29,420 nt of DNA from positions 1-29,420 of IMG/VR virus record IMGVR_UViG_3300050821_004633. One strand, 5' to 3'. The first letter of the stretch is position 1. Every line of letters starts with the position of its first letter. The position numbers were made by a program, and so were the translations under genes. The DNA is from a virus. The notes under the pieces were generated by a model. That model was not told where the DNA came from and searched no databases. It saw nothing but the letters and a program-made list of their open reading frames with translations. This document shows, one piece after another, positions 23,769 to 29,290 of the stretch.

Positions 23769-24275
23769 CGGTATCCCTCCCGCTCCGTGTACGGCCTCGC
23801 CCAGTCGAACGTGTCGGCCATGGCGGCCTGCGGCCTGGTCTCGGCTGCCCGCTGCGGTGCCGTGTTGGCCTTGAGCGCGACGGGCGCGTACCCGCGCCGG
23901 GGGACGGGCGGCGGGGTGATGACCCACCGTGCGGCGGGTGCCCGCCCCGAAGCGGGCAGGGCGGGCACCTCCCCCGGTGCCGCAGACCGGAGGTCGACCG
24001 GGAAGGCTGCCCGCCCCGCCCGTACCGGGGCGGGCAGCCTCTTCTCCGGTGCCGTAGCGCCAACTCCGGGACCGGAGGGCATGAGGGTGATGTCGGCGCG
24101 CAGCTGGCGGCACCACCACCAGATGACGACGGCTTCCCAGGCGCGGTGCAGTAGCGACGGGGAGCGCTGGCCGCGTTCTTGCTGGCGGGGGCTGGTCTTG
24201 GCGTGGCGCGGGGTGTAGCCGCGTTTGCGGGCCAGGTCTGCGGGGATGAGGTCGGGCGCCAGGAGGGGCGGTCAC
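23765..24275 (-). pseudogene. frameshifted gene of unknown function (about 169 residues if restored)
   Basis: The coding frame (very high third-position GC) runs from just after the Top6A-like stop to 23765 and reads LAPDLIPADLARKRGYTPRH...RAWEAVVIWWWCRQLRADIT, ending DTFDWARPYTEREGYR. It has no ATG or GTG at its 5' end. The expected GTG (GTGA overlap at 24275) is in another frame. Removing one C from the four-base run at 24265-24268 would join them as MTALLAPDLIPADLARK. So either the gene is broken, the base is a sequencing error, or a CTG is used. An internal ATG at 24082 could give a 105-residue product. Confidence 0.6.
23937..24039. repeat. two tandem long hairpins inside the frameshifted gene
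   Basis: Hairpin 1: GGTGCCCGCCC (23937-23947) with GGGCGGGCACC (23959-23969). Hairpin 2: GGCTGCCCGCCCCG (24005-24018) with CGGGGCGGGCAGCC (24026-24039), a perfect 14-bp stem with a 7-base loop. Each is followed on the plus strand by a similar tail ending CCGGTGCCG, so they look like two degenerate copies of one unit about 68 bases apart. They could stop transcription or be inserted repeat elements. Confidence 0.75.
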
Positions 24276-25192
24276 TGGCCCGCTCCCGTCAGTCCGTCGA
24301 GCGTGCGCAGGATCTCGGCGCGTTCCTCGTCGCCGCGCTCCCGCGCAGCCTCAAGCGCGTCGTGGTCGATGACCTCGCTGATAGCCGCGTCTATCTCGGC
24401 GGCCAGGACGTCGGGCGGCAGCGCCTCGGCCTGAACGGTGTCGGGCATCCGCTCGCCGCGTACGTCGGTGCGCTTCTGCGGTGACGTCGGCAGCCCGTAG
24501 CGCTCGATCTGGTCGGGCGTGACTGCGATGCGCCGCCAGTCGACCTCTTGCCGCCTGGCCAGCTCGCCGACGAAAGCGCCGACGTCAGCCGCCAGGGAGT
24601 CGATGATCGCGCAGCCGGAGGGGTCGTAGTCGCCGACGTGGAAGATGATGACGGGCTTGTCCTGCTGCGCGATGCGCTCGGCGGTCTCGTACTTGTCGGT
24701 CAGGCCGTTGAAGCCCCCGGCGGTGTACGAGGTGATGCCGTAGGGGTTGGCGACGGCGGCGGCCTGGGGCAGCATGCCGCCCGCTTCGACCCACAGTTCG
24801 CAGTGGTACGGCTGGCCGTCTGTCTCGTCGTGCTGGTAATAGTCTGCGCTGCGCTGGACGTAGCGCCAGAACGCGCGCGGGCTTGACCAGCCCGGGCCGC
24901 CTTGCGAGTCGGTGCCGTCGTCGCGGATCGAGCTGAACGGGATGATCCGGGCCCGGCGCGCCCGGTTCAGGTACTCGCACAGCCGGGCGTACGCCTGTTC
25001 GGTCTTCTCGTAGTGGTGGGCACCGACCAGCCGGTAGAAGATCTGGCGGTTGGTGAGCGGTAGCTGGGCGCGGTACTCGCGGAGGATGCCCTGAACGGTG
25101 TCCAGCAGTGCGAGCGTTTCCGGGCGGGGGTTCCACTCGGCGAAGCCGCGCACGCGGGTTGAGGTGTACGTGCGGCCGGTGACGGTGCTCAC
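24272..25192 (-). CDS. orphan Spo11/topoisomerase VI-A-like protein (TOPRIM)
   Basis: This 306-residue protein resembles the A subunit of topoisomerase VI and Spo11, which cut DNA through a tyrosine. TNRQIFYRLVGAHHYEK matches the R-x-I-Y/F-Y motif of the winged-helix domain, with Tyr53 at the catalytic place. Next come LNRARRARIIPFSSIRDDG and a TOPRIM domain with Glu136 (LWVEAGGM) and Asp188/Asp190 (FHVGDYDPSG). The end has GLPTSPQKRTDVRGERMP and a helical tail. No B subunit (GHKL ATPase) is in the window. Orphan short relatives called Mini-A are known from mobile elements. GTG start in a GTGA overlap. Confidence 0.75.
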   Translation of the reverse strand: MSTVTGRTYTSTRVRGFAEWNPRPETLALLDTVQGILREYRAQLPLTNRQIFYRLVGAHHYEKTEQAYARLCEYLNRARRARIIPFSSIRDDGTDSQGGPGWSSPRAFWRYVQRSADYYQHDETDGQPYHCELWVEAGGMLPQAAAVANPYGITSYTAGGFNGLTDKYETAERIAQQDKPVIIFHVGDYDPSGCAIIDSLAADVGAFVGELARRQEVDWRRIAVTPDQIERYGLPTSPQKRTDVRGERMPDTVQAEALPPDVLAAEIDAAISEVIDHDALEAARERGDEERAEILRTLDGLTGAGQ

Positions 25193-25909: not shown

Positions 25910-26056
25910 TTATGCGGGGACTGGCTCGGCGAGCCTGACGAGGTGCGGCGCGAGGATCGCGGCGACGCGGTCGGCCTGTTCCTGGCTGAGCGGGGGCAGT
26001 GCGGCGCTATCGCGGTCGGCTGCGGCGATCACCTCGGCCAGGGTGCGGCAGATCAT
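25910..26056 (-). CDS. 48-residue protein coupled to the leftward regulator
   Basis: The ATG overlaps the stop of the Cro-like gene (ATGA). The product reads ICRTLAEVIAAADRDSAALP, then PLSQEQADRVAAILAPHLVR and LAEPVPA. The PLxxEQADRVAxILAPHL segment is a pattern frequent in small actinobacterial phage proteins. It is short and helical. Being second in the early operon, it may assist regulation or excision, but that is a guess. Confidence 0.7.
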   Translation of the reverse strand: MICRTLAEVIAAADRDSAALPPLSQEQADRVAAILAPHLVRLAEPVPA

Positions 26057-26307
26057 GACGCGGCCTTCGCGATCTGCTCGTAGCCTTCGACGGTGATCGC
26101 GGCGAGCGGGATGTTCAGCTTGTCCGCGATAGCCCGGCAGACCTGCGGGGTTGCTCTCCGCGCGCCAAGCTCGATGTTGCTGAGCTGCGGTCGGCTGATC
26201 CCGATGGCGTAGGCCAGCTCGGCGATCTTCAGCCCGTGAGCTTCCCGCAGGGCCCTGATGGTGGCGCCTAGGCGGGTCGCCTCAGGGTCGGTTGTGGCTT
26301 GCTCCAT
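26053..26307 (-). CDS. Cro-like XRE-family regulator (leftward)
   Basis: This 84-residue protein is almost only a helix-turn-helix: LGATIRALREAHGLKIAELA, then YAIGISRPQLSNIELGAR, with a short tail. It is the first gene of the leftward early operon. Its promoter is near consensus and its ATG lies 7 bases after the -10 box, so the mRNA should be leaderless. One 17-bp operator fills the spacer of that promoter. By analogy with other phage switches it would be the Cro-type partner of the divergent repressor; it could alternatively act as the repressor itself. Confidence 0.8.
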   Translation of the reverse strand: MEQATTDPEATRLGATIRALREAHGLKIAELAYAIGISRPQLSNIELGARRATPQVCRAIADKLNIPLAAITVEGYEQIAKAAS

Positions 26308-26314
26308 ACAGGAG

Positions 26315-26344
26315 ACAATACGAAACCTTCGGAAACCTTGTCAA
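26315..26344 (-). promoter_or_regulatory. leftward early promoter
   Basis: Minus strand: -35 TTGACA (26339-26344, perfect), an 18-base spacer, -10 TATTGT (26315-26320). The Cro-like ATG begins 7 bases further, at the predicted transcription start. The spacer consists almost entirely of operator O1, so a bound regulator would block RNA polymerase directly. Confidence 0.75.
26322..26338. promoter_or_regulatory. operator O1 (17 bp)
   Basis: GAAACCTTCGGAAACCT is the exact reverse complement of O2 at 26424-26440. Internally GAAACCTT occurs twice 9 bases apart (the second extends one base past the 17-mer). It lies between the -35 and -10 boxes of the leftward promoter. Confidence 0.75.
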
Positions 26345-26347
26345 GCT

Positions 26348-26362
26348 GAAACCTCAGGAATC
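26348..26362. promoter_or_regulatory. degenerate operator O3
   Basis: GAAACCTCAGGAATC matches the first 15 bases of O1 with three differences and lies in the same orientation just upstream of the leftward -35 box. It could be a lower-affinity site. Weaker evidence than O1 and O2. Confidence 0.45.
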
Positions 26363-26423
26363 GGCAACCTGTTACGCAAGGCTCAGTTATTACAGGCGAC
26401 TTAACGCGGCACATGCCGACTTG

Positions 26424-26440
26424 AGGTTTCCGAAGGTTTC
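26424..26440. promoter_or_regulatory. operator O2 (17 bp, inverted copy of O1)
   Basis: AGGTTTCCGAAGGTTTC is the exact inverse of O1. It ends 15 bases before the repressor ATG and just upstream of its ribosome binding site, a position suited to autoregulation. Confidence 0.75.
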
Positions 26441-26455
26441 ACGGAAGATGTGCAC

Positions 26456-27037
26456 ATGGATGCACACGGCAGGCTGCGCGCCGGGCAGGCGACAGCAGCC
26501 CGGCGCGGCAGGATGGATCTCACCCAGGAAGAGCTGGCCAGCAAGGCTGGCGTGTCCGCCAGGACGATCGGCGACCTTGAGTCAGGGAAGCGGTGGCCCA
26601 TAGCCCGCAACCGGACGCGCATCGAGCTGGCTCTCGAATGGCCAGACGGCGAGATCGCTCGCAAGGCGCAAGAGCCTGCACCAGAGACTCCCCTGATCCG
26701 TCCCGGCCTGTATCGCGAACTCGTGCGGGAAGTCGGCGACGACGACGCGGCGGCGGTGCTGGAACTGCTCGCCGAACGCCGCCGCAGGAAGGAGTTAGCC
26801 CTTCGATCGCGCCATGTGCGCGATGTCGGCCACCGCGTGAATAAGGAACCGCTTGTCGGCATCCTTGTCCTTGACCACGACCGTCCCGGCCACCGCCGCG
26901 CCTGTGGCGACGATCACCACCCGCACGGGCAGCAGCCATATCCCGGCGATAGCCGCGGCCCATGCGATGGCTGTCGCGGTCCTGAGCAAGATGCGCCTGG
27001 TTCTGTGCATACCGATCCCCCCTTAGTGATGCGGTAG
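26456..27037 (+). CDS. XRE-family repressor (rightward), 3' part doubtful
   Basis: The ATG lies 8 bases after GGAAG. Residues 18-45 are an HTH of the common actinobacterial type (GRMDLTQEELASKAGVSART, IGDLESGKR). A linker and helical region follow (LYRELVREVGDDDAAAVLEL, LAERRRRKEL). Beyond about residue 114 the frame continues over the convergent membrane-protein gene with weaker coding signal, so the original end is uncertain. It is the likely lysogeny repressor: divergent from the Cro-like gene and sharing operators. It lacks an evident peptidase domain, so induction by RecA cleavage is not predicted. Confidence 0.68.
   Translation: MDAHGRLRAGQATAARRGRMDLTQEELASKAGVSARTIGDLESGKRWPIARNRTRIELALEWPDGEIARKAQEPAPETPLIRPGLYRELVREVGDDDAAAVLELLAERRRRKELALRSRHVRDVGHRVNKEPLVGILVLDHDRPGHRRACGDDHHPHGQQPYPGDSRGPCDGCRGPEQDAPGSVHTDPPLVMR
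26795..27010 (-). CDS. small two-span membrane protein
   Basis: This 71-residue protein starts at ATG, 5 bases after AAGGGGGGA. Two hydrophobic segments (TATAIAWAAAIAGIWLLPV and VVIVATGAAVAGTVVV) are followed by a charged helix (KDKDADKRFLIHAVADIAHM). It is convergent with the repressor gene, whose frame runs through it on the other strand. Expressed in the lysogeny region, it could be a superinfection-exclusion or membrane regulatory protein. Function is not shown by sequence. Confidence 0.65.
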   Translation of the reverse strand: MHRTRRILLRTATAIAWAAAIAGIWLLPVRVVIVATGAAVAGTVVVKDKDADKRFLIHAVADIAHMARSKG

Positions 27038-27229: not shown

Positions 27230-27784
27230 ATGTCCGGATGGCAGCCACCACAGTACGACCCGCGCCAGCATCAGGAGCGCATCAGTGGTCCGCAGTCGCC
27301 GCAGTACGCGCCTCAACCGCCGTGGCTGCAGCCCGGCCATGGCCAGCCGTCAAAGCGCAAGAGCCACAAGCTGATTATCATGCTCGGCATCATCGGCGGA
27401 CTGGCTCTCGGACTAGCTCTCATCGGCGGCGTAGCATCCGTGCTCCGTTCACCATCGGGCGTTCATGCACAGGCCGCTGCGCAGGCGCCCGCAGCCAAGG
27501 TCACTCCGGAGGTTGTCGCCCGGTATCGGGGCGCGGGCATCCTGAACACGCCCCGCTTCACGGTGGGTGCCACGTGGGAACTGGAATGGTCCTACAACTG
27601 TGGGAATGGCCCCGGTGTTTTTGTCATCATGGAAGACGGCGGCAACGACATGGCTGCATACACGGGTGGCGACGGCGGCACAACACAGTCCTCATCCACC
27701 TGGGTTTACGACGATGCAGGCACGCACTATTTGGAGATAGATACCGGATGCGCGTGGACTGTCAAGGTGATCAACCAGAGCTGA
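27230..27784 (+). CDS. membrane-anchored exported protein (possible lysogenic conversion gene)
   Basis: This 184-residue protein has a Pro/Gln-rich cytoplasmic start (1-45), a membrane helix at about 48-71 (LIIMLGIIGGLALGLALIGG), a short linker, and an extracytoplasmic beta-rich domain (FTVGATWELEWSYNCGNGPG; HYLEIDTGCAWTVKVINQS). Cys124 and Cys174 could pair. Domains with a WELxWSYxC ... YLEIxxxCxWTVKV pattern recur in actinobacterial membrane proteins and prophages. The ATG is 8 bases after GGAGG. Its orientation, opposite to the lytic genes, suggests expression in the lysogen, for example exclusion of other phages. Confidence 0.75.
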   Translation: MSGWQPPQYDPRQHQERISGPQSPQYAPQPPWLQPGHGQPSKRKSHKLIIMLGIIGGLALGLALIGGVASVLRSPSGVHAQAAAQAPAAKVTPEVVARYRGAGILNTPRFTVGATWELEWSYNCGNGPGVFVIMEDGGNDMAAYTGGDGGTTQSSSTWVYDDAGTHYLEIDTGCAWTVKVINQS

Positions 27785-27791
27785 CTCTTCC

Positions 27792-27845
27792 CTGGAAATC
27801 GACTCCGAATGCAACTGGAGTATCAAGGTCATCGATGAGGGTTAG
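27792..27845 (+). pseudogene. 3' remnant of a second copy of the exported-protein gene
   Basis: After the stop codon, an in-frame stretch reads LEIDSECNWSIKVIDEG and a TAG. It matches the end of the upstream protein (LEIDTGCAWTVKVINQS) position for position around the Cys and Trp residues. Only the last 17 codons survive. The TAG overlaps the integrase stop. It is the trace of a replaced or deleted paralogue. Confidence 0.65.
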
Positions 27846-29290
27846 AGCGGTTCCAGCCGGACATCCTCGGTGCGGAATCCGGGCCCGCGGCCCGACGCGG
27901 GCAGCACGGTCACCCGCAAGCACGAGGACACCAGTGCGCGGCTCACCGGCAGCGGGAGCGCCCTGAACTCCTCCAGGGTGATGCCGCGGTAGTCGGCGAG
28001 CAGCCGCGAGCCCTCGTTCGCCGCCTCCAGCCCGCGCAGCTCGGTGATGCGCGCGTCGATCGAATCCAGTCGCCTCATCAGCAGCCGCGTGCGCCCCGCG
28101 CTGCCCCGGTAGTCGGCCAGCGCCGCCTCGACGTCGGCGCGCTCACCGGCCAGCGCCGTCCACTCCGGCATGAAGTCCGCGGCGGGCACGCGCGCCTGCG
28201 GGTTGAGCGGGCTGTTCAGCCGGGCGACAGTGTGCACCGACACCCAGGCGTCCAGGTGCGCGGCGTTGCGGTACACCTTCCCGCAGCCGCCCCTGTCCCG
28301 CTTGGAGCAGGCGTAGACGACCGTCTTGTACGACCGGCCCTTGGCCCGGTCGCCGCTGGTGATGTGAGCGATCCGCATCGGCCGGCCGCACCGGCCGCAG
28401 CAGGCGATGCCGGACAGCAGCCAGCGCGCCGGGTGCGTGCCGCGCGGGAAGGCGCCGGCGCGCCTGTCGACGGCCATGCGGGCCCGCTCCCATGTCTCGC
28501 GGTCCAGCACCGGCTCCCAGGCTGCCTTCGTCTCGCCGTCCGGCATCAGCCCGGCGTAGCGCGGGTTGCGCAGTATCCGCTTCAAGGTGCTGCGATCAAG
28601 AGGCTTGGCCGCCGGGCTGGCCCATCCCCGGGCGGCCAGGTCCGTCACGATCGCCCCGGCGGACTCCCCGGCGATTGTCCGCCGCGCCATCTCGCGCACG
28701 ATGTCAGCCTCGGTAACCTCCCGGCGGCCCGCGACCTCGCACCGGTCGGCGGCCAGGTGCGTCACCCCGTCGCTGGCGAACCCGAACCGCCTGCCGCCCG
28801 GGCCGCCCGCCATCACCTTCCCGTCCCGGCGCCACCGGTCGAAGCGGGCTTTCTGGCGCCGGGAGATGTTCGCGGACTCGCGGCGCGCCATGGCCGCTTC
28901 GATGGACAGCACGAACTGGTCCTCAGCCGAGTCGAGGTCGCGCTCGCCGGTCGGGCTGGCCAGGCGGATGCCCTTGCCGCGGGCGAGGTTGAGCAGCATT
29001 TCCAGGTCCCACGGCTGCCTGATCAGCCGGTCACCGTGGTAGACGACGATCGCGCGGACGTGCCCGGCCTCGACGTCGGCGAGCATCCGTTCCCACTCCG
29101 GGCGGTGGCGGTCATGGTGCCACGCGGACTTGTTGTTGTCGCTGTAGACGTCGAACACGTCCCATTCGCGGCCCTCGCACAGCTGGCGGCAGATGCGCGC
29201 CTGGTCGTCAACCTTGGTCGTGTCGCCGTCGCGGGCGAGGGAAAGTCGGCAGTAGATGGCGGCCGGAAGCCGCCGGGCTACGGTTGTCAC
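27842..29290 (-). CDS. int: large serine recombinase (phage integrase)
   Basis: This 482-residue enzyme integrates and excises the phage. The N-terminal resolvase domain has Ser17 as nucleophile (AAIYCRLSLARDG), KVDDQARICRQLC, and VVYHGDRLIRQPWDLE with the catalytic arginine. Then come a recombinase domain (GGRRFGFASDG; RNPRYAGLMPDG) and a zinc ribbon (ACCGRCGRPM and ACSKRDRGGCGK). A coiled-coil region follows (ERADVEAALADYRG; RRLDSIDARITELRG). Size is usual for actinophage large serine integrases. The GTG start has no ribosome binding site but lies 8 bases from a -10 box, so a leaderless mRNA is likely. Confidence 0.93.
   Translation of the reverse strand: MTTVARRLPAAIYCRLSLARDGDTTKVDDQARICRQLCEGREWDVFDVYSDNNKSAWHHDRHRPEWERMLADVEAGHVRAIVVYHGDRLIRQPWDLEMLLNLARGKGIRLASPTGERDLDSAEDQFVLSIEAAMARRESANISRRQKARFDRWRRDGKVMAGGPGGRRFGFASDGVTHLAADRCEVAGRREVTEADIVREMARRTIAGESAGAIVTDLAARGWASPAAKPLDRSTLKRILRNPRYAGLMPDGETKAAWEPVLDRETWERARMAVDRRAGAFPRGTHPARWLLSGIACCGRCGRPMRIAHITSGDRAKGRSYKTVVYACSKRDRGGCGKVYRNAAHLDAWVSVHTVARLNSPLNPQARVPAADFMPEWTALAGERADVEAALADYRGSAGRTRLLMRRLDSIDARITELRGLEAANEGSRLLADYRGITLEEFRALPLPVSRALVSSCLRVTVLPASGRGPGFRTEDVRLEPL

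What the first reader, a model, noticed from the sequence alone, without database searches (positions are those of the whole stretch)
26308..26460. Compact lysis/lysogeny switch with exact inverted 17-bp operators
O1 (26322-26338) and O2 (26424-26440) are exact inverse copies placed at the two divergent HTH genes. O1 fills the spacer between a perfect TTGACA and TATTGT. A third degenerate site lies between. This is an unusually clear switch readable from sequence alone.
Basis: partly seen in the sequence, partly recalled or inferred. Interest (0 to 1): 0.6.

Follow-up and report, generated by a model that had tools for sequence, protein, structure and literature searches.

The report
Phage repressor/Cro switch with paired operators
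This is the on/off control region of a temperate bacteriophage of actinobacteria: two back-to-back regulator genes share a repeated DNA binding site, and the same layout, which I did not find described, recurs in dozens of related phages.

Summary
A 17-bp sequence at 26322-26338 recurs as an exact reverse complement at 26424-26440, between two divergent XRE-type HTH genes, well beyond chance. O1 fills 17 of the 18 bp between TTGACA and TATTGT. The third, degenerate site (26348-26364) is real but weaker.

The window is a temperate actinophage record. The minus gene (84 aa) is Cro-like and heads the early genes; the plus gene is the immunity repressor. Each operator is not a palindrome but two head-to-tail half-sites (AGGTTTC-N3-AGGTTTC, 10 bp apart) reading along its own promoter, which is why the copies are inverted.

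In 36 non-redundant related cro promoters the -35/-10 spacer repeats itself at exactly 10 bp (59% match versus about 25% at most other spacings; z 13). An in-frame start codon follows the -10 by 4-8 nt in 43 of 45, so cro is probably leaderless. About ten relatives show the same inverted layout at the repressor promoter.

It is a new member of the known actinophage repressor/Cro kind; the operator layout was not found in the papers searched. Because O1 and O2 are identical, affinity for the 17-mer alone cannot rank them. Binding is untested.

The parts
26053..26307 (-). cro-like gene, 84-aa XRE/HTH_3 protein, first gene of the leftward early genes
   Evidence: Pfam HTH_3; 51-59% identical over its core to HTH proteins of M. 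abscessus prophages and mycobacteriophages
26339..26344 (-). -35 element TTGACA of the early (cro) promoter
   Evidence: sequence; promoter scan; conserved in relatives
26315..26320 (-). -10 element TATTGT of the cro promoter; 7 nt before the ATG, implying a leaderless cro mRNA
26322..26338 (-). operator O1: two head-to-tail half-sites AGGTTTC (26338-26332 and 26328-26322) in the promoter spacer
26348..26364 (-). operator O3, degenerate: plus-strand half-sites GAAACCT 26348-26354 and GAATCGG 26358-26364, same orientation as O1, upstream of the cro -35
   Evidence: 12/17 match to O1, shuffle p 0.015; relatives have an upstream half-site pair at a similar place
26424..26440 (+). operator O2: AGGTTTC 26424-26430 and 26434-26440, in the repressor promoter, exact inverse of O1
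   Evidence: same position in relatives
26421..26426 (+). predicted -35 TTGAGG of the repressor promoter (overlaps O2)
   Evidence: sequence plus relatives with TTGATG-TTCC at the same place
26444..26449 (+). predicted weak -10 GAAGAT of the repressor promoter, 6 nt before ATG 26456
   Evidence: inference from relatives with CACACT at this place
26456..27037 (+). immunity repressor gene, XRE N-terminal domain; the 3' end is uncertain (overlaps a minus-strand ORF)
   Evidence: Pfam HTH_3; homologous to annotated immunity repressors
25910..26056 (-). 48-aa ORF overlapping the cro stop (ATGA), probably co-translated with cro
   Evidence: reading frame
27842..29290 (-). large serine integrase; marks the phage as temperate and lies near the repressor
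   Evidence: PHROG integrase 3e-80 and Pfam Resolvase/Recombinase

Best explanation
This is the immunity switch of a temperate actinobacterial siphophage. Back-to-back promoters drive Cro and the early genes leftward (strong promoter, TTGACA/TATTGT) and the repressor rightward (weak promoter, TTGAGG/GAAGAT). Each promoter carries, in its -35/-10 spacer, an operator of two head-to-tail half-sites one DNA turn apart, both reading along the direction of transcription. A regulator bound there blocks RNA polymerase. The repressor bound at O1, helped by the neighbouring O3, silences the early operon in a lysogen; repressor or Cro bound at O2 limits repressor synthesis. cro, and probably the repressor, are translated from leaderless mRNAs. 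Shown: the DNA sites, the genes, and conservation of the layout. Inferred: who binds, the transcription starts, the cooperativity and the switching.
For: Genes and temperate context: HTH_3 domains and serine integrase; Cro homologs at 44-59% identity and repressor homologs annotated as immunity repressors, in the same divergent order, in M. abscessus prophages and mycobacterial and Gordonia phages. Operator chance tests. The hypothesis came from ten phage records and was tested on other loci: 28 held-out representatives below 80% Cro identity match at lag 10 in 144/243 spacer positions (59%, z 11.5); other lags lie at 24-27% except lag 11 at 33%. 18 of 38 representatives have a repeat of 5 or more bases at lag 10 versus 0.2 expected (maximum 2) in shuffles, and the signal sits on the spacer, with a lesser peak 30-40 bp upstream, near where O3 lies. 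The repeated word differs among phages (GTTCC, AGGTTTC, CGTTGGG, TGACGCG, ATCGCGA) while the repeat stays. In-frame start 4-8 nt after the -10 in 43/45. Repressor promoters: lag 10 z 4.5, e.g. TTGATG-TTCCTTGTTGTTCCCGA-CACACT-N7-ATG; inverted operator copies near the repressor start at p 0.025 or less in ten relatives.
Against: No binding or transcription data. The repressor-side -10 (GAAGAT) is poor, and the repressor-side repeat signal is weaker and split between lags 10 and 11. Promoters were picked by a -35/-10 score, although that choice does not favour a 10-bp repeat in the spacer. Operator differences track Cro phylogeny at least as much as the Cro recognition helix (partial Mantel r 0.25 for the helix, 0.38 for the rest of the protein), so the bound protein is not identified.
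Confidence: 0.85

Rival explanations
1. Only one of the two proteins uses these sites; the other (for example Cro) acts by protein-protein contact or at other DNA, so this is a one-regulator autoregulated switch.
For: The recognition helices of the two proteins differ (SRPQLSNIE versus SARTIGDLE), and two identical operators offer no way for two proteins to rank them by sequence.
Against: Both genes start directly at a copy of the operator, and the layout persists in relatives, as expected of control of both genes through it.
Confidence: 0.3
2. The operators are bound by ordinary dimers on hidden inverted half-sites, and the direct repeat is incidental.
For: XRE proteins usually bind palindromes as dimers (general knowledge); L008 has a palindromic core TGACGCGTCA.
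Against: No shared inverted half-site was seen, while the lag-10 repeat is the conserved feature across unrelated half-site words.
Confidence: 0.15
3. The repeats are a promoter or DNA-shape feature (bending, RNA polymerase contact), not regulator sites.
For: They sit in the promoter spacer, one helical turn apart.
Against: The repeated word changes between phages in both copies together, and further copies lie upstream of the -35 and at the second promoter.
Confidence: 0.05

Closest known systems
Divergent immunity repressor / cro modules of M. abscessus prophages and mycobacterial and Gordonia phages (e.g. MW584207, MW584152, NC_051738 ThulaThula, OP297548 Lton)
   Same: Homologous Cro and repressor, divergent order, integrase nearby, same promoter/operator geometry
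   Different: Here a serine integrase, a 148-bp intergenic region, a different half-site (AGGTTTC), and O1 and O2 exactly identical (11-15 of 17 in relatives)
Phage lambda OR switch (CI/Cro)
   Same: Divergent repressor and Cro genes with operators at both promoters and three sites in all
   Different: Operators are asymmetric direct repeats rather than palindromes; two of the three are identical; no peptidase domain found in the repressor
Phage P2 C repressor (PMC4752584) and phage 186 Apl (PMC7498355)
   Same: Lysogeny regulators that bind direct repeats in the switch region; Apl sites are 10-11 bp apart
   Different: P2 repeats are 22 bp apart; Apl is an excisionase-type protein; in 186 the promoters face each other; no sequence kinship was tested
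Mycobacteriophage BPs gp33 (PMC4557955) and L5/TipsytheTRex repressors (PMC9283540)
   Same: Actinophage repressors; BPs has PR and Prep divergent; L5 sites are asymmetric and oriented with transcription
   Different: BPs half-sites are 12-bp palindromes; L5 sites are single 13-mers dispersed over the genome, whereas here sites occur only in the switch

Membership tests
Actinophage divergent immunity repressor/cro module | HTH repressor gene divergently transcribed from a small cro-like HTH gene | tested here: met
   arrangement as described in PMC8092301
Actinophage divergent immunity repressor/cro module | Sequence homology of both proteins to annotated members | tested here: met
   Cro up to 59%, E 8e-17; repressor E 5e-5 and 1e-4 to two annotated immunity repressors and shared conserved columns
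Actinophage divergent immunity repressor/cro module | Repressor closely linked to the integrase | tested here: met
   integrase at 27842-29290; serine type
Actinophage divergent immunity repressor/cro module | Cloned repressor confers superinfection immunity | not testable with these tools
   needs an experiment
Lambda-type OR switch | Palindromic operators bound by dimers | tested here: not met
   O1 and O2 are direct repeats; the binding stoichiometry itself is untested
Lambda-type OR switch | Repressor with a self-cleaving C-terminal peptidase domain | tested here: not met
   only HTH domains found
L5-type stoperator immunity | Many copies of the repressor site dispersed over the genome | tested here: not met
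   two copies only within 3 mismatches in the window

The most novel reading that the evidence does not exclude
A widespread, so far undescribed class of actinophage immunity switches in which XRE-type Cro and repressor bind head-to-tail to half-sites one DNA turn apart, set inside the spacers of two leaderless divergent promoters. Because the operators are (nearly) identical, the decision rests on promoter strength, an upstream helper operator and protein contacts rather than on graded operator affinity.
Probability: 0.35. Interest if true: 0.55.

Novelty: new member of a known kind. Interest (0 to 1): 0.4.

Why it matters
The layout lets one read the likely immunity operator, and hence a likely immunity group, directly from sequence in many actinophages, including M. 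abscessus prophages, where at least 30 immunity groups are predicted but operators are not mentioned in the paper consulted (PMC8092301). It also raises a testable question: how XRE proteins recognise direct repeats one turn apart.

Tried and rejected
Single-protein scans with the Cro protein found nothing in viral contigs and one weak locus in genome contigs; a scan with the topoisomerase-like protein found nothing. Scanning 395 genomes of one bacterial class gave one close Cro, not analysed further. The Mantel test did not separate the recognition helix from phylogeny. BPs-type palindromic half-sites and L5-type dispersed stoperators were considered and rejected. Paper searches found no description of this operator layout, but only open-licence papers are held. 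The C-terminal end of the repressor gene could not be settled from codon-position GC.

Full report
Observation. The 17-bp sequence GAAACCTTCGGAAACCT at 26322-26338 occurs again as its exact reverse complement at 26424-26440. It is the longest exact inverted pair within 200 bp in the window; Markov copies of the window reached at most 16 in 200 trials, and shuffles of the intergenic region at most 13 in 3000. Even with three mismatches there is no other copy in the window. The minus-strand promoter TTGACA-18-TATTGT is the only promoter-like match in the region, and O1 fills 17 of its 18 spacer bases. A third site, 26348-26364, matches O1 at 12 of 17 positions (p 0.015 by shuffling).

Context. 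The window is a virus record of 29,420 bases. Leftward genes include exonuclease VIII, primase/helicase, terminase, portal, protease and major head protein, and a large serine integrase lies at 27842-29290: a temperate tailed phage whose nearest relatives are actinophages. The minus gene 26053-26307 heads the leftward early genes and is Cro-like; its stop overlaps the start of a 48-aa ORF (25910-26056). The plus gene from 26456 is the repressor.

Relatives. The Cro protein matches HTH/Cro proteins of M. abscessus prophages, mycobacteriophages (ThulaThula, dwieneke, Mycofy1) and Gordonia phages (Lton, annotated Cro; Murp; Cashline) at 43-59% identity. All ten inspected lie divergently to an HTH or immunity-repressor gene, and the repressors share conserved columns with the window protein. 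Repressors divergently transcribed from cro-like genes are described for M. abscessus prophages (PMC8092301), so the gene arrangement is known.

What the operators are. O1 read along its promoter is AGGTTTC-CGA-AGGTTTC: two identical half-sites in the same direction, 10 bp apart. O2 is the same along the repressor promoter. The inverse copies therefore mean that each promoter carries the operator in the same orientation relative to its own transcription. Reading the intergenic regions of ten phage records suggested the same design with other words, e.g. TTGACA-TGTTCCTGAGTGTTCCGA-TAGATT. I then tested it on loci from a separate scan of viral contigs and on loci fetched earlier. Across 45 distinct promoters the spacer matches itself at lag 10 in 222 of 385 positions against 108 expected (z 14.5). 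In 28 held-out representatives below 80% Cro identity it is 144 of 243 (59%, z 11.5); other lags lie at 24-27% except lag 11 (33%). Segments outside the spacer lie between 0.23 and 0.35 except for a secondary peak of 0.39-0.42 some 30-40 bp upstream, near where O3 lies in the window; half-site cores also peak there in the GTTCC group. Half-site words differ (GTTCC, AGGTTTC, CGTTGGG, TGACGCG, ATCGCGA) while both copies agree, so the repeat is maintained as the word changes.

Leaderless start. In 43 of 45 loci an in-frame start codon follows the -10 by 4-8 nt, mostly 7. In M. tuberculosis the TANNNT -10 lies 7-12 bp upstream of the start site and 26% of genes with a primary start are leaderless (PMC3898074). 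cro is therefore very probably leaderless, and no Shine-Dalgarno-like sequence precedes the window's cro ATG.

Repressor side. In relatives the repressor promoter reads TTGATG-TTCCTTGTTGTTCCCGA-CACACT-N7-ATG or close to it; the window reads TTGAGG-TTTCCGAAGGTTTCACG-GAAGAT-N6-ATG. The lag-10 signal there is significant (z 4.5) but weaker and shared with lag 11 (z 4.2). Reverse-complement copies of the cro operator lie about 13-16 nt from the repressor start in ten relatives.

Mechanism. Regulator bound in the spacer would exclude RNA polymerase (inference). Since O1 and O2 are identical over 17 bp, a protein's intrinsic affinity for the two should be alike, so the lambda logic of opposite affinity orders cannot apply to these two sites alone. 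The asymmetry that remains is the strong cro promoter versus the weak repressor promoter, O3 beside O1 only, flanking bases, and protein contacts. The -35 boxes are 76 bp apart, so the promoters do not overlap. Head-to-tail binding at one-turn repeats is known for 186 Apl and other excisionases (PMC7498355), and P2 C binds direct repeats 22 bp apart (PMC4752584); BPs and L5 repressors use other site types. Which of the two proteins binds is not settled: operator differences follow the Cro recognition helix (partial r 0.25, p 0.003) but follow the rest of Cro more (0.38).

Verdict. It is a new member of a known arrangement. The operator layout, shared by dozens of phages, was not found described in the literature searched; that search covered open-licence papers only.

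Noticed in passing
window 26795-27010 (-) versus 26456-27037 (+): The 3' third of the repressor reading frame overlaps a 71-aa minus-strand ORF that reads like a small membrane protein; the true end of the repressor is uncertain.
   Followed up: partly
window 27230-27784 (+): A 184-aa ORF with a P/Q-rich start and one likely transmembrane segment lies between repressor and integrase, on the repressor's strand; no family match. A candidate lysogeny-expressed gene.
   Followed up: partly
L006, L008, L015 (cro promoter spacers): More distant actinophage Cro promoters keep the 10-bp direct repeat with entirely different half-sites (CGTTGGG, TGACGCG, ATCGCGA).
   Followed up: yes
window 24272-25192 (-): Protein matching only PHROG 6247 (annotated DNA topoisomerase), without a Pfam or NCBIfam match; no close relative found in viral contigs.
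   Followed up: no
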